This document shows positions 44,690-56,621 of a stretch of 62,141 nucleotides of DNA, piece after piece; positions within the stretch are counted from its first letter, which is position 1; every line of letters starts with the position of its first letter. The DNA lies in NCBI GenBank assembly GCA_022842165.1, contig JALHQC010000021.1:1-62141 (forward strand). The letters are read 5' to 3'. Below the pieces are notes generated by a model. The model did not search any database. It was given only the letters and a program-made list of their open reading frames with translations, and was not told the DNA's origin. Source of the DNA: a bacterium (GTDB taxonomy: Bacteria > Pseudomonadota > Alphaproteobacteria > Rhizobiales > Aestuariivirgaceae). The position numbers were made by a program, and so were the translations under genes.

Positions 44690-46783
44690 ATGAATCCGCC
44701 CGTCAACGCCACCAGTCTCAATCAGCCCTTCACCGGCTGGGATGAACTCCGGTCGGGCTCCGGCGCGCCGGCCTGGAAGATCGAAAAGCCGCAGCCCGTG
44801 TCCCGTCACGACAGCGGCTTCGTGCCCTTCTTTCCGGACCAGAACGGCAAGGTCTATGAGGTGTTGCTGTCCAATCTCCCGGTCATGCTGCATTGCATGG
44901 ACGGGCAGGGCCGCATTTCATCGGTGAACCGGCACTGGGCCGCCTCCATGGGCTACACCCAGGACGAGGTGATCGGACGTTCCTTCAACGAGTTCCTGAC
45001 GCCGGAATCGCGCGCGCGGCTCGTCCAGGACATCTATCCCGCCTTTTTCCAGTCCGGCTCGTGCCGGGCCGAACTCGTCACCGTCATCCGCCGCGACGGC
45101 ACGCAGGGCCAGGTGCTGCTGTCGATGAATGCCTACCGGGGCGATAAGGGCCGCATCGAACGCTCGGTCTGCCTCATCGACCAGCCGGTTTCGGTCAATG
45201 TCGAAACCCCTGTCACCGTGGTTGACGACCAGCGCTTCCGCGGCGCATTCGATTGCGCGGTTCATGGCATCGCGCTGGCAGCACCCACCGGTGAAATCAG
45301 CCTCGGCAACAGCGCCTTCTGGTCGCTGCTCGAGAGAGAGCCCGGCAGTGCCGCGCTCGACACGCTGATCATCGCGGAGGACCGCAACGGCTTCCTGATG
45401 CTGATGAGCGACCTCCTGCAAACCGCGAAGGACACCGCACGCCTCGAACTGCGCTTTGCCAGGCCCGGCGGCCGCACCATCCAGTGCGACACCAACATCA
45501 CCATCGTGCGCAGCGGCTCGGGTGCGATCGAGCAATTGATCGTCCAGATCACCGATGCCAGCGAAAAGAAGAAGGCCGCCTCGTCGCTCCAGCGCGCCCA
45601 GAAGATGGAAGCGATCGGCCAGCTCACTGGCGGCCTCGCGCATGATTTCAACAATCTCCTCACCGTCATCATCGGCAATCTCGAATTGCTCGAAGGCAAG
45701 CTTCAGGACGAGCGTTCGACGAAGCGCCTGAACGAGGCGATCGATGCCGCCCGCAAGGGCGCGGGCCTGACGCGCCAGATGCTGGCTTTTGCAAGGAAGC
45801 AGGAGCTTGAGCCGCGCGAGGTGCGCATCAACGAACTCGTCTCCGGCATCGAACCCCTGATCTCGCGCACCATCGGCGAGCAGGTCGAACTGAAAGCCGA
45901 CCTGATGGCCGGCGAGCCGCTGGCTGTCATCGATCCCTCGCAGCTCGAATCCGCCATTCTCAATCTCTCCATCAACGCCCGCGATGCGATGCCGCGCGGC
46001 GGCCGCCTGACGATCGAGACGCAGCCCGTGTTCCTCGACCAGGCCTATGCCGAGAAGCATCAGGAAGTGAACCCCGGCCATTATGTGATGGTGGCGGTGT
46101 CGGATACCGGCAGCGGCATGCCGCCCGAACTTCTCGAGAAAGTCTTCCAGCCCTTCTTCACCACGAAGGAGCAGGGCAAGGGTTCGGGCCTCGGCCTGTC
46201 GATGGTCTACGGCTTCATCAAGCAGTCGGGCGGGCATATCAACGTCTACAGCGAAATGGGCCACGGCACGGCGGTGAAAATGTATCTGCCGCGCAAGTTC
46301 GCAGTGGGCGAGATCATTCCGGAAGTCTTGGGCGTCGCGCCGCAGATGGTGGCGGAGGCCGAACCTGAAACCGCAGCCGAGCCGGAGATCGAGATCGCCG
46401 CTCCGCGCCTGCCGCGCATCCTCGTGGTCGAGGATCAGGAAGCCGTGCGCGCGGTTGCCTGCGGGTTCCTGCAGGACTTCGGCTACGACGTGGTCGAGGC
46501 CGAAGACGGGCTTCAGGCGCTCGCCAGGCTCCAGGAAAATCCCGACATCGACCTGATGTTCTCGGACGTCGTCATGCCGGGCGGCCTCAACGGCTTCGAT
46601 CTCGCGCAGGCGGCGCGCGGCATCCGGCCCGATCTCAAAGTGGTCCACACGTCGGGCTACCCGAAGGGCGCCATGGTGCACCAGGAAGAGCCGCGCTTCC
46701 GCGAAGGCTTCATCATCATGAAGCCCTATCGCCGCGAGGACCTGCAGAAAATCATCCGCGACGCGCTCGAAATCCAGCACTAG
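44690..46783 (+). CDS. PAS-domain hybrid histidine kinase with C-terminal receiver
   Basis: A 697-residue soluble sensor kinase with no membrane segment. PAS domains lie at about 55-165 ([20 protein letters not shown]) and 180-295. HisKA carries the phospho-acceptor His in [20 protein letters not shown]. The ATPase domain shows [18 protein letters not shown] and [18 protein letters not shown]. The receiver at about 580-697 has [20 protein letters not shown] and phospho-acceptor [14 protein letters not shown]. This arrangement is common in Hyphomicrobiales; the signal and output are unknown. It is followed by another kinase on the same strand, with a perfect 8-bp hairpin between them. Confidence 0.9.
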
Positions 46784-46793
46784 CCGCGATACC

Positions 46794-46812
46794 CAACGCT
46801 GGTTCAGCGTTG
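46794..46812. terminator. short perfect hairpin between two sensor-kinase genes
   Basis: CAACGCTG-GTT-CAGCGTTG, an 8-bp perfect stem with a 3-base loop, lies 11 bases after the stop of the PAS hybrid kinase. There is no following U-run, so it could be a weak terminator or an operator palindrome for the next gene. Confidence 0.4.
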
Positions 46813-46826
46813 ACTTTGCGTGACCC

Positions 46827-49343
46827 GTGACTAGACTCCGGGGCATTGCAGGAACGAGAGCGTTGCCTGATTCAGTCTTGTCTGACCAGACTCTGCCGGA
46901 CACCGATAATGGCGGGCCTGCCGGAAAGCCGGTGAGCCGGACAGACTCCCCGTTGTCCACGATCGCCGCCGGGCGCCCCCGGCTCTGGGTTCTGCTGGTG
47001 TTTTACGCCGCCTATATCGTGGCGGCCAGGCTGGGGCAGGGCTTTGCCATCGTTCCCGGCGTTTCGGTCACGTTCTGGCCGCCGTCGGGCGTTTTCGTCG
47101 CGGCGCTGCTGCTCACCCGGCGCGGAAGCTGGCCGTGGTGGGTCGTCACGGCCTGCCTTGCTGAGTTGACCTGCAACTGGCTGTGGTTTCACAGCCCGGT
47201 GCCGATTGCGCTGGTCTATTTCGGCGGCAATGCGCTGGAGGCGCTGGCCGCCGCCTGGCTGATCGGGCGCGCCGCCACCTCGCCCTTCCGCCTCGACACG
47301 CCGGACCAGGTGGTGCGGCTCATCGTGTTCGGCGCCATCGTCGCGCCGGTGATCGGGGCGACCGTCATCGCGCTGACCGATCATGTCCTCGGCAAGCATC
47401 ACTTCCTCACGGCCTGGCCGCTCGTCTGGCTGGGCGACGGCACGGGCCTGCTGGTATCGACCCCGCTGACGCTGGTCGCGGTGCAGATCTGGCAGGCGCG
47501 CTCCCGGCTGATGACGTCACGCACCGCCGAGGCGGTGATGCTCGCCATCGTGCTCTGCGGTCTCGCGGCGCTGTGCTTCCAGCGTATCCTGCCGACGATC
47601 TATCTCACCATGCTGCCGCTCCTGTGGATCGCGGTGCGCTTCCAGCTGCGCGGTGCTGCCGTGGCGCTGGGCGTTCTGGTGCTGATGACCGCCTGGTTCG
47701 CGGGCGGCGAGGCGGCGGCCCTTGCCAGCCGTCCGCAACTGATGCAGCAGAAGATCGAGCTTCAGGCCTTCATCGGCATCTCGGCGCTTTCGGCCCTGTT
47801 CGTCGCGGCGCTGGCGCAGCAGAACCAGCAATCCCTCAAGAGCCTGCAACTCGCCAATGCGCAGCTCGAGGAGCGCGTCGCCGCGCGCACCGCCGAACTG
47901 AGCGAGCGCGAGCAGCAGTTCCGCCGCGCCCTCGATGCCGGCGGCGCGCTGGTCTACACCGTGGGTCTCGAGCCCGGCAGCGTCGCCCGCGTTCATGGCC
48001 TCGAACGGGTCACCGGCTACGATCCCGCCAAGGTTCCGCTCACCAACGACTGGTTCTGGAGCCTCATTCACCCGGATGATTTCGAGGCCTACCAGCATTA
48101 TTCCGAGGGCTTCATCGCATCGGGCGGCGGCCGCCGTTTCGCCTACCGCATCCGCCATGCCGGCGGCTCGTGGCTCCACATCGAGCAGACGGCCGAGTTG
48201 GTCCGGGACGGCGACGGCAAGCCCGTCTACATCGTCGGGGCCATCGTCGACATCTCCGAAAGAAAAGAATACGAACTGGCGCTGATCGAGGCCCAGCGGT
48301 TCTCCCAGGGCCTCATCGATGCCGCGCCCAACGTGCTCTACATTCACGACTTTGCGGAGCACCGGAATGTTTTCGTGACGCCCCAGGTCGAGGCCATCCT
48401 CGGCTACACCGTCGCGGAATTCCAGGGCGCCAGATCGAGCGTTCTCGACGACTACCTCCACCCCGAGGATCGGCCGCGCCTCGCGGCCTTCATCGATACG
48501 CTCGTCGCTACGCAAGACTCCGCGCCGCATCGCCTCGAATACCGCATGCGCCACAAGAACGGCCGCTGGATCTGGCTGGCGGACTACATGACCGTCTACC
48601 GGCGCGACGCGCAGGGCCGCCCCACGCAGCTTCTCGGCGCGGTCTACGACATCATGGAGCTGAAGCATCAGGAGCAGCTCCGGCAGCTTCTCATGCGCGA
48701 GGTGGCGCACCGGTCGAAGAATATTCTCAGCCTGGTTCAGGCCATCGCGCGGCAAACCGCCCGTCACGATCCGGAAAACTTCCTCGACAATTTCTACGAC
48801 CGGCTGTCCTCGTTGGCCGCCGCGCACGACCTTCTCGTCAACAGCAGCTGGAAAGGCGTGGTGCTGCAGGATCTGGTTGTCTCGCAGCTTGGCCATTTCA
48901 AGGATATGCTGGGCAAGCGCATCACGATCGCCGGTCCGGCGCTCGCCGTCAATTCCGCCGCCGCGCAATCGCTGGCGATGGTGCTGCACGAACTTGCGAC
49001 CAATGCCGGAAAATACGGAGCCCTGTCCAACGCCAACGGAACGATCCGCATCGACTGGAGCCTCACCCCCGCCGCGACCGGAGAAACGCAATTCGACATC
49101 GCGTGGATCGAGCGCGGCGGCCCGAAGGTCAAGGCCAGCGGGCATCGCGGATTCGGTTCGACCGTCATCGAGCGCATGAGCAAGGCGGCCTTGAGCGCCG
49201 ATGTCAGCTATGAGCTCTCGCCGCCGGGCGTCACCTGGCGGCTGTCGTGCAATGCAAGCCAGGTCCTCGAGCCGCCCTTGCCGCAACAGGGATCGGGCGG
49301 CAACGGCGGCCAGGAAGCGGGCCCCCGGCCTTCGCCGGGGTGA
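46827..49343 (+). CDS. MASE1-PAS-PAS sensor kinase of the HWE family
   Basis: A membrane sensor kinase of up to 838 residues. The start is ambiguous: GTG at 46827, or TTG at 46863 which has AGGAA at good spacing. An integral MASE1 sensor fills about 45-340 (ARLGQGFAIVPGVSVTFWPP). Two PAS domains follow (about 365-480 and 490-610). The kinase core has the HWE hallmark EVAHRSKNILSLVQAIARQT, and its ATPase domain has VLHELATNAGKYGAL, IAWIERGGP and GFGSTVIERM. No receiver is fused; HWE kinases often feed the general stress response or motility. The last residues, GPRPSPG, and the stop codon come from a palindromic repeat arm. Confidence 0.9.
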   Translation: MTRLRGIAGTRALPDSVLSDQTLPDTDNGGPAGKPVSRTDSPLSTIAAGRPRLWVLLVFYAAYIVAARLGQGFAIVPGVSVTFWPPSGVFVAALLLTRRGSWPWWVVTACLAELTCNWLWFHSPVPIALVYFGGNALEALAAAWLIGRAATSPFRLDTPDQVVRLIVFGAIVAPVIGATVIALTDHVLGKHHFLTAWPLVWLGDGTGLLVSTPLTLVAVQIWQARSRLMTSRTAEAVMLAIVLCGLAALCFQRILPTIYLTMLPLLWIAVRFQLRGAAVALGVLVLMTAWFAGGEAAALASRPQLMQQKIELQAFIGISALSALFVAALAQQNQQSLKSLQLANAQLEERVAARTAELSEREQQFRRALDAGGALVYTVGLEPGSVARVHGLERVTGYDPAKVPLTNDWFWSLIHPDDFEAYQHYSEGFIASGGGRRFAYRIRHAGGSWLHIEQTAELVRDGDGKPVYIVGAIVDISERKEYELALIEAQRFSQGLIDAAPNVLYIHDFAEHRNVFVTPQVEAILGYTVAEFQGARSSVLDDYLHPEDRPRLAAFIDTLVATQDSAPHRLEYRMRHKNGRWIWLADYMTVYRRDAQGRPTQLLGAVYDIMELKHQEQLRQLLMREVAHRSKNILSLVQAIARQTARHDPENFLDNFYDRLSSLAAAHDLLVNSSWKGVVLQDLVVSQLGHFKDMLGKRITIAGPALAVNSAAAQSLAMVLHELATNAGKYGALSNANGTIRIDWSLTPAATGETQFDIAWIERGGPKVKASGHRGFGSTVIERMSKAALSADVSYELSPPGVTWRLSCNASQVLEPPLPQQGSGGNGGQEAGPRPSPG

Positions 49344-49450: not shown

Positions 49451-50140
49451 ATGCTGATCCACACACTCTTCGACCTTCTCGCCGCCGCGTCGGCCCTCAC
49501 CATGACCTTCCTCGTCTACCGCTGGCGGCTGGCCGATGCCGGGCAGAAGATCGAGCATGCCGGGGCGGGCTATGCCTTTGCACTCGTCATCGGCGCTGCC
49601 ATCGGCGGCTTCGGGGCGGGCACGCTGAACCTCTGGCTGTCGGGCAATCCGGCGATCGGGCGCAGCATCGTCGGCGCGCTGGCCGGCGCCATCGCGGCAA
49701 TCGAAATCTTCAAGCAGGTGCGTGGCATCCGCGGCTCCACCGGGCTGATCTTCGTTCCGGCCTTCGCCACCAGCGTGATTGTCGGGCGCTGGGGCTGTTT
49801 CCTGTCCGGCCTCGAAGATGAGACCCATGGCACGCCCACGACGCTCCCCTGGGGCCATGACTTCGGCGACGGAATTTCACGCCATCCGGTGCAGCTCTAC
49901 GAATCCTTCACCATGGCGGCGTTCCTCGCTGCCGCATTGATCCTCATTGCCCGCCGCAACCCGTTTTTCATGCGCCACGGCTTCTATCTGCTGGTGCTCA
50001 CCTATGCCACGCAGCGCTTCGCCTGGGAGTTCCTGAAGCCCTATGGCGCGGTCATCGGGCCCTTCAACCTGTTCCATTTCATTTGCGCCGGACTCGTGAT
50101 TTACTCCGCCTTCATGATCGGCAGGACGAGGACGGCATGA
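49451..50140 (+). CDS. prolipoprotein diacylglyceryl transferase-like membrane protein
   Basis: A 229-residue polytopic membrane protein of the Lgt family, shorter than housekeeping Lgt (about 270-290). Six to seven hydrophobic segments are visible. The Lgt signature region is recognisable: GRWGCFLSGLEDETHGTPTT (about 117-136), in the place of the GRxGNFxNG motif, and RHPVQLYES (about 147-155), matching the HPxQLYE motif. Lgt moves diacylglyceryl from phosphatidylglycerol to the cysteine of a lipobox. It heads a compact operon; its stop overlaps the next start in ATGA. Because it is short, divergent and linked to a radical SAM enzyme, I infer a specialised lipid-transfer role rather than the general Lgt. 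Confidence 0.85.
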   Translation: MLIHTLFDLLAAASALTMTFLVYRWRLADAGQKIEHAGAGYAFALVIGAAIGGFGAGTLNLWLSGNPAIGRSIVGALAGAIAAIEIFKQVRGIRGSTGLIFVPAFATSVIVGRWGCFLSGLEDETHGTPTTLPWGHDFGDGISRHPVQLYESFTMAAFLAAALILIARRNPFFMRHGFYLLVLTYATQRFAWEFLKPYGAVIGPFNLFHFICAGLVIYSAFMIGRTRTA

Positions 50141-50577
50141 CCCGCGCAGATTTCTGGTGCCGCGTACTGGGCTGGCTGCAGATCATTGGCGCCGCCATCT
50201 GCGGTGCTGCCATCTGGTGGCTCTGGGAAGTGATCCTTGGCTGGATCGAAATCGACTCGGGCGGCTTCTTCACGCTTCTCAAATGGCTCATCATCCTGTT
50301 CTTCACCGGCCCGCCGTTTTTCTCGGGGCTGCTCACTGTCGTCTTCGCCAACAAGGTTGAACAGGCGCGGCAAGGGTTCCGCGAAAATCCGCATTGGGCG
50401 CTCCGCGTTGCCACCGCGCTGGCAGGCCTGTGGTCGGCGGGCGTCATCGGCTTTGCAGGCGTCAGCGTTCCGGCGCTTGGCGTCTTCGCGGTCCTGGGCC
50501 TCATCAGCGCCGTCATCGCCATCATGGGGGCGGACTGGACTGCCGATCTCCTGAAACCCAACGAGGCCCAATCGTGA
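50137..50577 (+). CDS. uncharacterised four-helix membrane protein in the Lgt-like/radical SAM operon
   Basis: A 146-residue protein with four hydrophobic segments at about 8-30, 46-68, 86-106 and 108-130. I do not recognise a family. It starts with MTRADFWCRVLGWLQIIGAA at the ATGA overlap with the Lgt-like gene and ends in a GTGA overlap with the radical SAM gene, so all three are translationally coupled. Aromatic residues cluster at membrane edges (WWLWEVILGWIE). Two cysteines are near the N-terminus (C8 and C20). A helper or substrate-channel role for its neighbours is only inferred from the coupling. Confidence 0.82.
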   Translation: MTRADFWCRVLGWLQIIGAAICGAAIWWLWEVILGWIEIDSGGFFTLLKWLIILFFTGPPFFSGLLTVVFANKVEQARQGFRENPHWALRVATALAGLWSAGVIGFAGVSVPALGVFAVLGLISAVIAIMGADWTADLLKPNEAQS

Positions 50578-51986
50578 ACGCGCCCATCCGCAAGATCGCG
50601 CCCTATATCTTCTACGGCCAGACCACCTCGATGTGCGGCACCTGCATGGCGCTGGTGCCCGCCAAGATCATCATCGAGGATACACACGTCTATTACCTCA
50701 AGCGCTGCAGGACGCATGGCGTCGAGAAGACGCTCGTCTCGACCGATGCCGCCTATTACAAGCTCTGCCATGATTACCTGAAGCCGGGAGACAGGCCGCT
50801 GTCGCCCCAGACCCGCACCGAACTTGGCTGCCCCTATGACTGCGGGCTATGCCCCGATCACGAGCAGCATTCCTGCCTGGCGCTCATCGACGTGAACGAG
50901 GCCTGCAATCTCACATGCCCCGTGTGCTTTGCCGATTCCTCGACGCAGAAGACCGCGCACCGGCCATTGGCCGAGATCGAGCGGATGATGGATGCGCTGG
51001 TGGCAAGCGAGGGCGAACCCGACCTTCTGCAGATTTCCGGGGGCGAGCCGACGATCCACCCGCAGATACTCGACATCATCGCGGCGGCGAAGCGGCGGCC
51101 CATCCGCCACATCATGCTCAACACCAACGGCATCCGCATCGCGCAGGAGCCTGAATTCGTGAGTCAATTGAAGAGCTTCAAGCCGGGCTTTGAAGTCTAT
51201 CTGCAATTCGACTCGCTAAGGGCTTCCGTTCACAGGAACCTGCGCGGGGCGGACCTCACCCGGATCAGGAGGCAAGCGCTCGAAGCCCTTGAACGAGAAT
51301 CGATTTCGACAACGCTGGTCGTCGTCGTCAAGCAGGGCCAGAACGATGACGAGCTTGGCGAGATCATCAACTTCGCGCTGCAATGGAAATGCGTGCGCGG
51401 CATCACCTTCCAGCCCATTCAGGATGCCGGCCGCAACGAAGGCTTCAATCCGGCGACGGACCGTTTCGTGCTCTCTGACATCCGCCGCAAAATCATCGAG
51501 GCCGGAACGCCCTTCGGTGCCAGCGACATCATCCCGCTGCCATGCAATCCGGAATCGATCGCCATCGGCTACGCGCTCCGCAGCGGCAACAAGATCGCGC
51601 CGATCACATCGTTCTTCCCGAAAGACATGCTGGTCGAGGCGCTGCCCAATGCCATCACCTTCGAGAAATACCCCGACCTTCACCGCCAAATCCTGAACTT
51701 CTTCTCGCTGTCGACGGCGGAATGCAACAACCCCGAAAAGCTCGATGCGCTCCTATGCTGCCTGCCGCAGATCCCGGTGCCCGAAGGCATGGGCTACGAG
51801 AACATCTTCCGCATCGCGATTGTGGAATTCATGGACCAGCACAATTTTTGCATCGGCCGCGTGAAGCGGAGTTGCATCCATTTCGTGACGCCCAACGGCC
51901 AGATCATCCCCTTCGAAACCTACAACATGTTCTACCGCGATGCGGCAGCGAGAAAGCGGATGGCGGTGAGCAGGGGCATGGCATGA
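50574..51986 (+). CDS. radical SAM enzyme of the MJ0619/tetraether synthase (Tes)-like group
   Basis: A 470-residue enzyme; the GTG start at 50574 overlaps the previous stop. The radical SAM cluster motif is CNLTCPVC (C111, C115, C118), with the SAM-binding GGEP-like ISGGEPTIHP after it. Additional cysteines stand before it in the order CGTC (C21, C24), C45 and CPYDCGLCPDHEQHSC (C86, C90, C93, C101), the pattern seen in MJ0619 and archaeal Tes, which hold extra clusters. Tes joins lipid alkyl chains by carbon-carbon bonds; MJ0619-like enzymes have been linked to pterin methylation. The chemistry here is not known. Its setting next to an Lgt-like enzyme favours a lipid substrate. The stop overlaps an ATG that begins a tandem repeat. 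Confidence 0.87.
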   Translation: MNAPIRKIAPYIFYGQTTSMCGTCMALVPAKIIIEDTHVYYLKRCRTHGVEKTLVSTDAAYYKLCHDYLKPGDRPLSPQTRTELGCPYDCGLCPDHEQHSCLALIDVNEACNLTCPVCFADSSTQKTAHRPLAEIERMMDALVASEGEPDLLQISGGEPTIHPQILDIIAAAKRRPIRHIMLNTNGIRIAQEPEFVSQLKSFKPGFEVYLQFDSLRASVHRNLRGADLTRIRRQALEALERESISTTLVVVVKQGQNDDELGEIINFALQWKCVRGITFQPIQDAGRNEGFNPATDRFVLSDIRRKIIEAGTPFGASDIIPLPCNPESIAIGYALRSGNKIAPITSFFPKDMLVEALPNAITFEKYPDLHRQILNFFSLSTAECNNPEKLDALLCCLPQIPVPEGMGYENIFRIAIVEFMDQHNFCIGRVKRSCIHFVTPNGQIIPFETYNMFYRDAAARKRMAVSRGMA

Positions 51987-52370
51987 AGGTGTTCCGCGCA
52001 CCCTTATCCCTTCTCGCGCAGCGGGGAGGGTGTCCGCGCAGCGGACGGGTGGGGTTCGTGCCGCACCGGGATTGTCAGACCTTCACCCGCGGCCGCGACC
52101 CCCATCCGTCACGCGCTGCCGCGCGCGCCACCTTGCCCCCGCGCTGCAGGCGCGGTGGAAGGAGAGGGTCGCGCACATGAAAATCATCTTTGCCCCTTTA
52201 TCCCTCCTCGCGCAGCGGGGAGGGTGTCCGCGCAGCGGACGGGTGGGGTCCGTGCCGCACCAGGATTGTCAGAGCTTCGCCCGCGGCCATCACCCCCATC
52301 CGTCACGCGCTGCCGCGCGCGCCACCTTGCCCCCGCGCTGCGGGCGCGGTGGAAGGAGAAAGCCACGCAC
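51983..52370 (+). repeat. two 194-bp direct tandem repeats at a coupled stop-start junction
   Basis: Unit 1 is 51983-52176 and unit 2 is 52177-52370, with high identity. Each begins with ATGAA and ends with a GGAAGGAGA-like ribosome-binding site and CGCAC just before the next ATG. Inside each is a hairpin-forming core (GCGCAGCGGGGAGGGTGTCC; GCGGACGGGTGGGG; CCCCATCCGTCACGCGCTG). The first unit starts in the radical SAM stop codon and the second ends at the start of the next gene. This is the only stretch of over 300 bp without a credible gene; each unit holds a 65-codon open frame, which I regard as a by-product of the repeat. Confidence 0.88.
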
Positions 52371-52733
52371 ATGAAAATCATTCTCGGCATTTTCTGCGTC
52401 CTCATGGCACTGTTCGCAGGCGGCTGCGCGCTGATCCTGTTCTCCGGCAGCGGTTATAATGGCATGTTCCAGTCGCTCCCCATGGCAACCATTCCGGGCG
52501 GCATCGCGGCGCTCAATGTGCTGGTGCTGGTGGCGCTGTTCGGGCGCGCCAAGCCGCAGGCCTGGGCTTTCCATGCCCTGGTGGTGATCGATGTCGCCGC
52601 CATCGCCATCCTGGCGCTTGTGTGGGCCAGCCTTGGTTTCCAGGATTCCGGAGTGAATGTCTTCGGCGCCGTATTGATCGGCCTCATCGGCATCAAGGCC
52701 GTTCTGACCTACCTCGCAGCCAAGAAGCTCTGA
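52371..52733 (+). CDS. small membrane protein with lipobox-like GGC motif (first of three)
   Basis: A 120-residue protein with four hydrophobic segments. The first (about 4-25) contains LFAGGCALILF with cysteine at residue 19, a lipobox-like position. The other helices are near 36-56, 62-84 and 94-114. Its ribosome-binding site (GGAAGGAGA) and upstream sequence are supplied by the second unit of the 194-bp repeat. I do not recognise a family. The same motif recurs in the next two genes, suggesting a related trio that could be substrates of the Lgt-like enzyme; the strongly hydrophobic residues after the cysteine argue against an ordinary exported lipoprotein. Confidence 0.75.
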   Translation: MKIILGIFCVLMALFAGGCALILFSGSGYNGMFQSLPMATIPGGIAALNVLVLVALFGRAKPQAWAFHALVVIDVAAIAILALVWASLGFQDSGVNVFGAVLIGLIGIKAVLTYLAAKKL

Positions 52734-52743
52734 TGATCGTCCC

Positions 52744-53004
52744 ATGCATATCCTGCTGATCGTCGCCGGCCTCTTGCTCCTCGTCTTCGGCGGCGGCTGC
52801 ACGCTGATCATGGGCGGTTTCGCCATCATGGACTGGCGGTCGACGCTGAACGATTTCGCCAGCGTCGCCAGCCTCCTCGGCGGGCTCGGGCTCCTGCCGC
52901 TTGCCGCAGGCTGGTTCCTGTTCCGCCACGGCGTGCGGATCGACCGCGAGAAGCGGAAAGCGGCGGCGGAGCGGTTCCGCCACAGCGAGAAAGGACAAAA
53001 CTGA
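52744..53004 (+). CDS. small membrane protein with lipobox-like GGC motif (second of three)
   Basis: An 86-residue protein with two hydrophobic segments (about 3-27 and 41-62) and a basic, charged C-terminal tail (IDREKRKAAAERFRHSEKGQ). LLLVFGGGCTLIMGG places a cysteine at residue 19, exactly the position in the preceding protein. It starts ten bases after the previous stop, and its own stop shares a base with the next start (TGATG), so the three small genes are cotranscribed. No family recognised. Confidence 0.72.
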   Translation: MHILLIVAGLLLLVFGGGCTLIMGGFAIMDWRSTLNDFASVASLLGGLGLLPLAAGWFLFRHGVRIDREKRKAAAERFRHSEKGQN

Positions 53005-53324
53005 TGTTCGGCTTCGCCATCGTCGGCCTTCTGGGCCTCGCCACCGTGCTGTGGTTCCTGCTGGAACGGCACGAGAACCGCCGGGCGCTGGCCGGAAAGC
53101 CGCGCCATTCCAGCCTCCGCCTCGTCATTGCCGCGGTGGCGCTGCTGCTGCTGCTGTTCGCGGGCGGCTGCTCGCTGCTCTTCATTTCCGACATGTCGCG
53201 CCCCGGTCCCACCTACGTCACCTGGGAGGCGGTCGCCATCATCGGCGGCATCCCCTTCGCGCTGGGGCTTTTCATCTTCTGGCTGGCCATGCGGCGGACG
53301 ACATCCGCGCCTCCGCCAGCTTGA
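53004..53324 (+). CDS. small membrane protein with lipobox-like GGC motif (third of three)
   Basis: A 106-residue protein with three hydrophobic segments (about 2-20, 39-62 and 74-97). The second carries LLLLFAGGCSLLFIS with cysteine at residue 56, so the motif is shared with its two neighbours but lies in an internal helix. A basic loop (ERHENRRALAGKPRHSS) separates helices one and two. It overlaps the previous stop by one base and is the last gene of the operon; TerC follows after 129 bp. No family recognised. Confidence 0.72.
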   Translation: MFGFAIVGLLGLATVLWFLLERHENRRALAGKPRHSSLRLVIAAVALLLLLFAGGCSLLFISDMSRPGPTYVTWEAVAIIGGIPFALGLFIFWLAMRRTTSAPPPA

Positions 53325-53453: not shown

Positions 53454-54218
53454 ATGGATTTCTGGCAGACCTACTTCTCCTTCGTCCAGTCACCCGAGGG
53501 CTGGATCGCCCTTGCCACGCTGGTGGCGATGGAAGTCGTGCTCGGTATCGACAACCTGATCTTCATCTCGATCCTGTCCAACAAGCTGCCGGAGGCCGAC
53601 CGCGCGCGCGCCCGGCGCCTCGGCATCGGCGCGGCCCTCATAATGCGGCTTGTTCTGCTGGCGACGATCTCGTGGATCGTGCAGCTCACCGCGCCGCTGT
53701 TCACCCTGTTCGGCCACGGTTATTCCTGGCGCGACATCATCCTCATTGCCGGCGGCCTGTTCCTGGTGTGGAAGGCGACCAAGGAAATCCATCACTCGGT
53801 CGATCCGGACGATCACAAGGAAGACATGCTGGGCAAGACCGCGACCCTCACGGTCGGCGGCGCCATTGTCCAGATCCTGCTGCTCGACCTCGTGTTCTCG
53901 GTCGATTCGATCATCACCGCGGTCGGCATGACGGATCATATCGCCATCATGTATATTGCCGTCATCGTGGCGGTCACCGTGATGCTGGTCGCCGCCGATC
54001 CGCTGGCGAAATTCATCCAGGCCAACCCCACCATCGTCATGCTGGCGCTGGGCTTCCTCCTGATGATCGGCATGACGCTGATCGCCGACGGCATGGGCTT
54101 CCATGTGCCCAAGGGCTACATCTACGCCGCCATGGGCTTCTCGGCGCTGGTCGAGGCGCTGAACATGTTCGCCAGGCGGGCGCGGGGGAGAACCAAGAAA
54201 ACTCCCGCCGCGCATTGA
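53454..54218 (+). CDS. TerC family integral membrane protein
   Basis: A 254-residue membrane protein with seven or more helices. TerC hallmarks are [20 protein letters not shown] and [20 protein letters not shown], two inverted repeats each with an essential aspartate, as found in metal-ion exporters of the TerC/Alx group. Manganese export is the best-supported role for relatives; tellurite resistance is the historical name. AAGGAC precedes the ATG. I looked for a yybP-ykoY manganese riboswitch in the 129 bp upstream and did not find one. Confidence 0.93.
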
Positions 54219-54251
54219 AGGTGAAGAACGGCCGCCTGTGGCCTCAGGCGG

Positions 54252-54770
54252 TCAGTTGCAGCCCGGATACATGTAGCGTTCGGCTTCCGAGATGTCGGAC
54301 GGGCAATAACCCTCGTGGTCCATCTCGTAGTGCGCGCCCTGCGGGTCGCTGGCGTTGACGCGCTTCAGGTGGCCGCTCGAACTGAAGATGCAGGCAAAGT
54401 CCGACTTGCCGCCGTCATCGAGAACCGCGCGGCCATAAAGCGTCCAGCCCTGTGGATTGTGTTCGGTCGTTTCCACCTTCACCGCCCGGGTGTGCGGAAA
54501 GAAGCGGCCGACCAGCGAGGCCCGGCAGGCGATCTTCATCATGTTTTTGTCGGCCTTGTCCTGCATCTTGTGGCCTTCGGTCTTGCCGGATTCCTCGGCC
54601 GCCCGGCAGCCGCGCTTGTAGGAGGCGCCGTGCTGGTTCTGGTCATAGTCGCCGCGGATGCAATCATTGTAGCCGCGCTTGTATTCGCGCTCCGAGACGG
54701 AGGATGCCTCGGCGCCGCTCAGCGTCACTGCCGCCGCTGCCGCAGCCAATAGGAAAAGCCTGATATTCAT
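54252..54770 (-). CDS. secreted protein of unknown function, cysteine-containing
   Basis: A 172-residue protein. The start at 54770 has GGGAG upstream and gives a Sec signal peptide (MNIRLFLLAAAAAAVTLSGA) cut near AEASS. The mature protein opens with a short motif that is imperfectly repeated, KRGYNDCIRGDY and YKRGCRAAEE, and has six cysteines in all, possibly paired in the periplasm. The C-terminal part (CIFSSSGHLKRVNA and EGYCPSDISEAERYMYPGCN) looks like a small beta-rich domain. I do not recognise a family. It converges with terC and stands alone. Confidence 0.75.
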   Translation of the reverse strand: MNIRLFLLAAAAAAVTLSGAEASSVSEREYKRGYNDCIRGDYDQNQHGASYKRGCRAAEESGKTEGHKMQDKADKNMMKIACRASLVGRFFPHTRAVKVETTEHNPQGWTLYGRAVLDDGGKSDFACIFSSSGHLKRVNASDPQGAHYEMDHEGYCPSDISEAERYMYPGCN

Positions 54771-54965
54771 GTTGGTGTGCTCCCGGTCCATGTTAACGCT
54801 ACGATAATCCCACATCCCAGCGTTGGTGCAACCGGATTGTGTTTCACGATTGCGTGCGGCCGGTTGTAGGGGCCTGGAATCGCTTTCACGGCCCCGGGGT
54901 TTACAGAAGTCTGCCCGCCCTCTAAACCCCGCGCCATATCAGCAAAATACTGGGATTCAACTCGC

Positions 54966-56621
<1,656 letters not shown>

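What the first reader, a model, noticed from the sequence alone, without database searches (positions are those of the whole stretch)
49451..53324. Operon joining an Lgt-like enzyme, a Tes/MJ0619-like radical SAM enzyme and three GGC-motif membrane proteins
Six genes lie on one strand, with ATGA, GTGA and TGATG overlaps at three junctions. The first has Lgt signatures (GRWGCFLSG, HPVQLYE). The third has CNLTCPVC plus seven upstream cysteines in the order known from archaeal Tes and MJ0619. The last three are small membrane proteins, each with F-[AG]-G-G-C. Lgt moves diacylglyceryl to cysteine and Tes couples lipid alkyl chains, so the combination suggests a membrane lipid or lipoprotein modification pathway in an alphaproteobacterium. 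I know of no described system with this content. The function is inference.
Basis: partly seen in the sequence, partly recalled or inferred. Interest (0 to 1): 0.88.

Follow-up and report, generated by a model that had tools for sequence, protein, structure and literature searches.

The report
Lgt-like, Tes-like, cysteine-protein gene cassette
A small set of neighbouring genes, found in very different bacteria, pairs two relatives of lipid-handling enzymes with tiny membrane proteins that mostly carry a cysteine near the outer face of the membrane, which suggests an undescribed way of attaching or reshaping lipids on membrane proteins.

Summary
In detail: six genes at 49451-53324, + strand, with the overlaps described. 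The radical SAM and Lgt-like genes form a widespread pair: of 154 distinct radical SAM homologues scoring 600 bits or more, 146 have an Lgt-like gene just upstream on the same strand; none of 21 lower-scoring homologues has one in its short flanks. A third part recurs: small membrane proteins with a cysteine near the outer end of a helix, in 124 of 152 testable loci against 56 of 373 control windows, though also in 9 of 22 lower-scoring loci. Distant cassettes (about 30% identity) repeat the three parts. The radical SAM protein has the Tes fold and metal ligands but forms its own clade and passes neither the Tes nor the TrsS cut-off. The Lgt-like protein keeps the catalytic arginines but lacks His103. 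Best explanation, inferred: the Lgt-like enzyme puts a lipid on the outer cysteine and the Tes-like enzyme alters lipid chains. No chemistry is shown. Ten literature searches listed no description of the cassette that I recognised.

The parts
49451..50140 (+). Lgt-like integral membrane enzyme, 229 aa; keeps the equivalents of Arg143, Tyr235 and Arg239 of E. coli Lgt, lacks His103, has GRxGC in place of GRxGN
50137..50577 (+). membrane protein of 146 aa, seen only in this genus; accessory, not part of the conserved core
   Evidence: five other loci of the genus matched, Cys22 not kept; no Pfam or NCBIfam hit
50574..51986 (+). Tes-superfamily radical SAM enzyme, 470 aa, GTG start; rubredoxin-type C21-x2-C24-x20-C45-x2-H48, C86-x3-C90-x2-C93, radical SAM C111-x3-C115-x2-C118, and family-invariant C101, C324, C395, C396, C434
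51982..52369 (+). two tandem 194-nt repeats (second copy 89% identical) between genes 3 and 4; parts of the unit recur elsewhere in the genome
   Evidence: 43 matches in the own genome including these two
52371..52733 (+). small membrane protein (four helices by a crude hydropathy rule in its relatives) with FAGGC near the outer end of helix 1
52744..53004 (+). small membrane protein, 86 aa, with FGGGC in its first hydrophobic stretch
53004..53324 (+). small membrane protein, 106 aa, with FAGGC in its second hydrophobic stretch, which follows a loop rich in Arg, Lys and His

Best explanation
A three-part cassette that modifies an integral membrane protein with lipid. (1) The Lgt-like enzyme, whose active site by homology faces the periplasm, transfers a diacylglyceryl or similar group from a phospholipid to the cysteine that the small membrane protein carries near the outer end of an inside-to-outside helix, a stand-in for the lipobox cysteine of an ordinary lipoprotein. 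(2) The Tes-superfamily radical SAM enzyme makes a radical at an inert carbon of a lipid chain and couples it to another carbon with the help of a further iron-sulfur cluster, as Tes does, either on the donor lipid before transfer or on the lipidated protein after it. (3) The small protein, often in tandem copies, is the acceptor. Shown here: the recurrence of the three parts, the folds of the two enzymes, the metal-ligand spacing, and the cysteine position (by a crude topology rule). Inferred: all chemistry, the lipid donor, the order of steps and the product.
Against: His103, which no tested mutant could replace in E. coli Lgt and which is proposed to help bind the peptide (PMC4728403, passages), is absent, and Asn146 is Cys in 34 of 34; Glu151 is not kept in the rows shown. 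This could mean a non-peptide acceptor. 28 of 152 testable loci show no outer-cysteine protein by my rule, 11 of them from the Paenibacillus-order sample, and at least one of the 124 positives (L137) looks spurious. 9 of 22 lower-scoring loci also pass the rule, two of them L042 and L043, and the 124 include 10 found only between the genes, a window not given to the controls. Nonomuraea L242 has both enzymes but I saw no outer-cysteine protein; the first small protein of L043 has no cysteine. The topology rule is crude. Tyr459 of Tes, reported as completely conserved in archaeal Tes, is Ile or Phe in 38 of 38, and Met439 is kept in 18 of 38, so the radical chemistry may differ.
Confidence: 0.45

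Rival explanations
1. A lipid-only pathway: the Tes-like enzyme couples fatty-acyl chains of phospholipids into bacterial membrane-spanning lipids, the Lgt-like enzyme exchanges or removes head groups, and the small proteins are scaffolds or subunits.
For: Bacterial Tes homologues were proposed to make membrane-spanning lipids (PMC8941075, passages). The Lgt-like enzyme lacks His103, thought to help bind the peptide. The Tes fold and ligand pattern are kept.
Against: It does not explain why sequence-unrelated small proteins keep a cysteine near the outer face. PMC11868695 (passages) states that the role of bacterial Tes homologues is not experimentally confirmed. The carriers listed include Bradyrhizobium, Paenibacillus and Mucilaginibacter, in which I recall no report of such lipids (recalled, not searched).
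Confidence: 0.25
2. The radical SAM enzyme modifies something other than lipid chains (the small protein itself, or a small molecule, for example by methylation), and the Lgt-like enzyme anchors the product or acts separately.
For: The N-terminal domain is filed in Pfam as Zn_ribbon_HMPTM, named for a pterin methyltransferase (the meaning of HMPTM is recalled). The TrsS profile covers the protein end to end, and relatives in haloarchaea and Mycolicibacterium stand beside methyltransferase genes, not Lgt. Several other radical SAM folds in the list are peptide maturases.
Against: The fold match to the lipid enzyme 7tol is far better than to any maturase (TM-score 0.80 versus at most 0.38 for the query among the maturases listed). 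The cysteine lies towards the outside, away from a cytosolic radical SAM enzyme.
Confidence: 0.18
3. The small proteins are redox or electron partners of the radical SAM enzyme and their cysteine works in thiol chemistry; the Lgt-like protein is a degenerate anchor or scaffold.
For: A single conserved cysteine; radical SAM enzymes need electrons. CcdA and a disulfide oxidoreductase stand near a related enzyme in L239.
Against: One cysteine cannot hold a cluster or form an internal disulfide, and it lies towards the outer side. L239 belongs to the methyltransferase type, not to this cassette. The Lgt-like pocket residues are invariant, which does not fit a degenerate scaffold.
Confidence: 0.06

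Closest known systems
Archaeal tetraether synthase Tes / GDGT-MAS (MJ0619, PDB 7tol, NCBIfam NF045702)
   Same: Overall fold (TM-score 0.80); ligand spacing of the rubredoxin-type iron, the N-terminal cluster and the radical SAM cluster
   Different: 279.8 bits against a cut-off of 450; separate clade; Tyr459 replaced in 38 of 38, Met439 kept in 18 of 38; own invariant cysteines 324, 395, 396; paired with an Lgt-like gene and small membrane proteins
TrsS, radical SAM (seleno)protein (NCBIfam NF045646)
   Same: Profile aligns end to end, 303.7 bits
   Different: Below the cut-off of 490 for all ten homologues scanned, L042 and L043 included. Related plasmid-borne proteins sit beside a methyltransferase, this one beside an Lgt-like gene
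Prolipoprotein diacylglyceryl transferase Lgt (PF01790, PDB 5azb)
   Different: No His103; Asn146 is Cys; Glu151 not kept in the rows shown; NCBIfam equivalog cut-offs not reached; a second, canonical copy exists in the own genome
Mss, bacterial membrane-spanning lipid synthase
   Same: Described as a synthase that couples alkyl chains, with catalytic architecture like Tes (PMC13274423, passages)
   Different: No Mss sequence was at hand, so kinship was not tested; the passages I saw mention no Lgt-like partner

Membership tests
Tes (NF045702) | score over the curated NCBIfam cut-off of 450 bits | tested here: not met
   279.8 bits for the window protein; 172-300 bits for ten homologues
Tes (NF045702) | fold of 7tol | tested here: met
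   AlphaFold model, TM-score 0.80 / 0.76, E 1.6e-37; residues 360-401 of the model are of low confidence
Tes (NF045702) | C-x2-C-x20-C-x2-H, C-x3-C-x2-C with His, and CX3CX2C ligand sets | tested here: met
   C21, C24, C45, H48, C86, C90, C93, H96, C111, C115, C118 in 38 of 38; Tes ligands from PMC9433317 passages
Tes (NF045702) | Tyr459, reported as completely conserved in archaeal Tes | tested here: not met
   position 437: Ile 22, Phe 16 of 38; correspondence taken from the alignment with a numbering offset of 20 that I deduced
Tes (NF045702) | labile Met439 ligand | tested here: inconclusive
   position 417: Met in 18 of 38, Val in the window protein
Tes (NF045702) | falls in the Tes clade | tested here: not met
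   56 members form one side of a branch, SH-aLRT 99, apart from M. jannaschii Tes; quick tree without bootstrap, long-branch warnings
Tes (NF045702) | couples lipid alkyl chains | not testable with these tools
   needs an enzyme assay
TrsS (NF045646) | score over the curated cut-off of 490 bits | tested here: not met
   303.7 bits; 243-335 bits for ten homologues
Lgt | Pfam LGT gathering score | tested here: met
   64.3 bits, cut-off 24.9, profile positions 82-238 of 240
Lgt | NCBIfam lgt equivalog cut-offs | tested here: not met
   33.7 of 428, 32.8 of 334, 27.1 of 118.9 bits
Lgt | Arg143 and Arg239 of the catalytic pocket | tested here: met
   R113 and R189 in 34 of 34
Lgt | His103 of the HGGL motif | tested here: not met
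   equivalent position 74: Val, Leu, Ala, Met or Ile in 33 of 34, Glu in L087
Lgt | fold of E. coli Lgt | tested here: met
Bacterial lipoprotein (genes 4-6) | lipobox [LVI][ASTVI][GAS]C (consensus recalled) | tested here: not met
   AGGC, GGGC, AGGC: no Leu, Val or Ile at -3, and hydrophobic residues continue after the Cys
Mss | sequence kinship to a characterised Mss | not tested
   no Mss sequence at hand

The most novel reading that the evidence does not exclude
An old, dedicated system, seen in named contigs of seven bacterial phyla (some of them metagenome bins) and in more distant form on an actinobacterial plasmid, builds a protein-lipid hybrid: an Lgt paralogue hangs a lipid on the outer-face cysteine of an uncleaved membrane protein, and a Tes relative welds lipid chains through a carbon-carbon bond, possibly across the two leaflets, so that the protein is stapled into or across the bilayer. 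If so, many bacterial Tes homologues taken as candidates for membrane-spanning lipid synthesis serve protein lipidation instead.
Probability: 0.25. Interest if true: 0.92.

Novelty: new variant of a known kind. Interest (0 to 1): 0.8.

Why it matters
What bacterial Tes homologues do is left open in the papers I saw (PMC8941075, PMC9433317, PMC11868695; passages). The cassette gives a concrete, testable answer: a partner enzyme (Lgt-like), a candidate acceptor (the small membrane protein) and a candidate residue (its outer cysteine), in genera with cultivated strains such as Bradyrhizobium, Paenibacillus, Mucilaginibacter and Sphingomonas. It also warns against reading any Tes homologue in a bacterial genome as a sign of tetraether lipids. 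If the lipidated product exists it would be a new protein modification and a new use of radical coupling of inert carbons.

Tried and rejected
Foldseek with the Lgt-like model gave no PDB match at E 0.001 or better, and 5azb is not among the 50 rows shown of 101; the VIA re-ranking put 5azb first, so that miss says nothing against an Lgt fold. phmmer of the Lgt-like protein against PDB sequences found nothing at E<=1. No Pfam or NCBIfam family passed its cut-off for the small proteins scanned: genes 2 and 4-6, eight relatives (Pfam) and six relatives (NCBIfam). A clustering of neighbours in 98 loci showed the Lgt-like cluster in 88 and the radical SAM cluster in 97; the next cluster was in 27 loci, and from the examples printed the rest looked like genus-level synteny in Bradyrhizobium and like groups; I did not identify an lspA-like or further lipid gene among the 45 clusters printed, which were not scanned against any library. 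Gene 2 as a core part was dropped. L239-L241 were considered as cassette members and set aside, because they carry a methyltransferase and no annotated Lgt in the stretch. L042 and L043 were first treated as outgroup and then found to hold all three parts in another order. An earlier wording of mine called all 21 low-scoring outgroup proteins Tes-like; in the tree only 15 of them sit beside M. jannaschii Tes, the other six being on long branches, so I now call them lower-scoring homologues.

Literature: ten searches. In one search none of the 12 papers listed held both 'tetraether synthase' and 'prolipoprotein diacylglyceryl transferase'; one search found no paper; one search found six papers with 'diacylglyceryl' and 'tetraether', whose titles and abstract starts concern lipidomics and archaeal envelopes and which I did not open. 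Only six papers were opened, as passages: PMC8941075, PMC9433317, PMC4728403, PMC13188914, PMC13274423, PMC11868695. The library holds openly licensed papers only; the original Mss paper was not seen.

Rows dropped and limits: L059 and L064; L007, L155, L021, L064 and L075 (the last three have a broken radical SAM frame); near-identical radical SAM sequences counted once (177 kept: 154 high, 23 low). The 154 are uneven, with many Bradyrhizobium and Paenibacillales. Loci from the genome search have flanks of about 1.5 kb or less. The window itself counts as negative because of its repeat insert.
Full report
What is there. The six genes are present as described: an Lgt-like gene (49451-50140), a membrane protein (50137-50577), a radical SAM gene (50574-51986, GTG start) and three small membrane proteins (52371-52733, 52744-53004, 53004-53324), with ATGA, GTGA and TGATG junctions. 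Two tandem 194-nt repeats (51982-52369) separate the radical SAM gene from gene 4; a 180-base query from the first copy has 43 matches in this genome, most of them to a core of about 50 bases. In several relatives of the genus the small gene starts 4 nt before the radical SAM stop. The own genome has a canonical, better-scoring LGT match elsewhere, and 15 of 15 other genomes checked have two or more LGT matches.

The radical SAM protein. Its best solved relative by sequence is the archaeal tetraether synthase (7tol; phmmer E 2.5e-61; profile E 4.4e-86). The AlphaFold model (mean pLDDT 83) matches 7tol with TM-score 0.80. The ligands of the rubredoxin-type iron, the N-terminal cluster and the radical SAM cluster have the spacing reported for Tes (PMC9433317, passages) and are invariant in 38 of 38 aligned members. 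But NCBIfam scores lie below the cut-offs for Tes and TrsS; Tyr459 of Tes is Ile or Phe in 38 of 38, and Met439 is kept in 18 of 38. In a tree of 80 rows the 56 members form one side of a branch with SH-aLRT 99; 15 lower-scoring proteins of the Acidobacteriota sample sit beside M. jannaschii Tes, and eight further lower-scoring ones, L042 and L043 among them, lie between on long branches (quick method, with long-branch warnings). So it belongs to the Tes superfamily but is not Tes.

Distribution. Within the genus 12 of 24 other genomes have a long match, one of them in a broken frame; 0 of 16 other genomes of the order in that sample have one. In even samples: class 6 of 385, including the own genome and two distant ones; phylum 12 of 398, including the own genome; order of a Paenibacillus 33 of 198; class of a Mucilaginibacter 12 of 247; phylum of a Granulicella 38 of 149 at E<=1e-60, of which 10 genomes at E<=1e-140; phylum of a Phormidium 8 of 146, one of them distant. 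The last four include the centre genome. Named loci (best 80 of 576) come from Pseudomonadota, Bacillota, Bacteroidota, Acidobacteriota, Cyanobacteriota with Melainabacteria, Planctomycetota and Verrucomicrobiota; many are metagenome bins, where wrong binning is possible. The pattern is patchy.

The pairing. Of 154 distinct radical SAM homologues scoring at least 600 bits with the family profile, 146 have an Lgt-like frame ending within 1.5 kb upstream on the same strand. Of the eight others, L112 and L148 lie at contig ends, L124 has one 3.2 kb upstream, L136 one downstream, and L126, L130, L200 and L234 show none. None of 21 lower-scoring loci (L210-L229, L237) has one, but their flanks are about 1.5 kb or less; the two remaining lower-scoring loci, L042 and L043, have one downstream. 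The loci were gathered by the radical SAM protein alone, so the pairing was not selected for; the Lgt-like profile was built from members of the first loci. Distances of the two proteins over 34 loci correlate (Spearman 0.86), which common descent would also give.

The third part. A hydrophobic ORF of 40-230 aa starts between -60 and +120 nt of the radical SAM stop in 116 of 153 loci, against 51 of 375 other conserved genes and 4 of 22 lower-scoring loci; 63 of the 116 start exactly at -4. 101 of 116 have a cysteine in the outer half of an inside-to-outside helix, against 8 of 51 control ORFs. Contexts differ by group: FAGGC, LPGLC and CSGLC in Alphaproteobacteria, LNAACFG in Bacillota, GFGTC and LGICG in Bacteroidota. 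BLAST clustering gives 16 clusters, 12 with the cysteine in the majority. Where nothing follows, such a protein often lies between the two enzyme genes: three in L143, and others in L146, L152, L199, L206 and L209; in Collimonas (L118, L119, with L072) and a Rhodocyclales bin (L123) it is a longer protein whose first helix ends in GTGC or GMAC before a soluble part that looks like Sel1 repeats to me (recalled, not scanned). Counting both places, 124 of 152 testable loci have one (114 downstream, 10 only between), against 56 of 373 downstream control windows and 9 of 22 lower-scoring loci, of which two are L042 and L043. The rule is therefore not specific by itself, and at least one positive (L137) looks spurious. 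28 testable loci have none by this rule, 11 of them from the Paenibacillus-order sample.

Replication at a distance. Two small alphaproteobacterial genomes with a radical SAM protein 30-31% identical (L042, L043; 243-244 bits for TrsS) encode, right after it, small membrane proteins, then an Lgt-like protein with GKIGC; both small proteins of L042 and the second of L043 have GTC after a helix, the first of L043 has no cysteine. A Mycobacterium avium plasmid (L243), 29% identical, has an annotated 'prolipoprotein diacylglyceryl transferase family protein' with GRIGC, two small hypothetical proteins whose last helices end in TAGIC and SAGYC, and the radical SAM gene, in this order. Nonomuraea (L242) has the two enzymes side by side but I saw no outer-cysteine protein. 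Relatives in two haloarchaea and Mycolicibacterium stand beside a methyltransferase gene instead.

How it probably works. The active site of Lgt is presumed to face the periplasm (PMC4728403, passages), and the small protein presents a cysteine there, at the end of a helix, like a lipobox cysteine but within a membrane protein that need not be cleaved. The simplest reading is lipid transfer to this cysteine, with the Tes-like enzyme acting on lipid chains before or after. All of this is inference from fold, residues and neighbourhood. The main counter-argument is the loss of His103: it could mean a different peptide acceptor or no peptide acceptor, as in the lipid-only rival.

Known or new. 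Bacterial Tes homologues have been counted and proposed to make membrane-spanning lipids (PMC8941075, passages), without experimental confirmation according to PMC11868695 (passages); PMC13274423 (passages) deals with Mss in Bacillota. None of the passages I saw mentions an Lgt-like partner or a cysteine protein, and my ten searches listed no paper that I recognised as describing the cassette. I call it a new variant of a known kind: known superfamilies in a combination that I could not find described, with unproven chemistry.

Noticed in passing
window 51982-52369: Two tandem 194-nt repeats sit between the radical SAM gene and gene 4; a core of about 50 bases recurs at dozens of places in the genome. 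The second copy ends next to the start codon of gene 4.
   Followed up: partly
L243:2111-5431 (Mycobacterium avium plasmid pS2b): A distant form of the cassette on a plasmid: Lgt-family gene, two small cysteine-bearing membrane proteins, radical SAM gene. Described only.
   Followed up: partly
L239, L240, L241: Relatives of the radical SAM gene (28-40% identical) in Mycolicibacterium and haloarchaea stand directly before a methyltransferase gene, near redox proteins: another cassette type.
   Followed up: no
L118 and L123, between the Lgt-like and radical SAM genes: In betaproteobacteria the cysteine protein is a longer protein with an N-terminal helix ending GTGC or GMAC and a soluble part that resembles Sel1 repeats (recalled).
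   Followed up: no
L214, L216-L229 (Acidobacteriota sample): Radical SAM proteins that group with M. jannaschii Tes in the tree, with no Lgt-like gene in their short flanks: candidates for true bacterial Tes.
   Followed up: no
L021, L064, L075 (one genome of the genus): The radical SAM gene has several stops in frame in this relative, a sign that the cassette can be lost. Left as it is.
   Followed up: no
window 44690-49343 and 53454-56621: Flanking genes look like two sensor kinases upstream, and a TerC-like membrane protein and an ABC-F ATPase downstream (names recalled from the translations, not searched).
   Followed up: no
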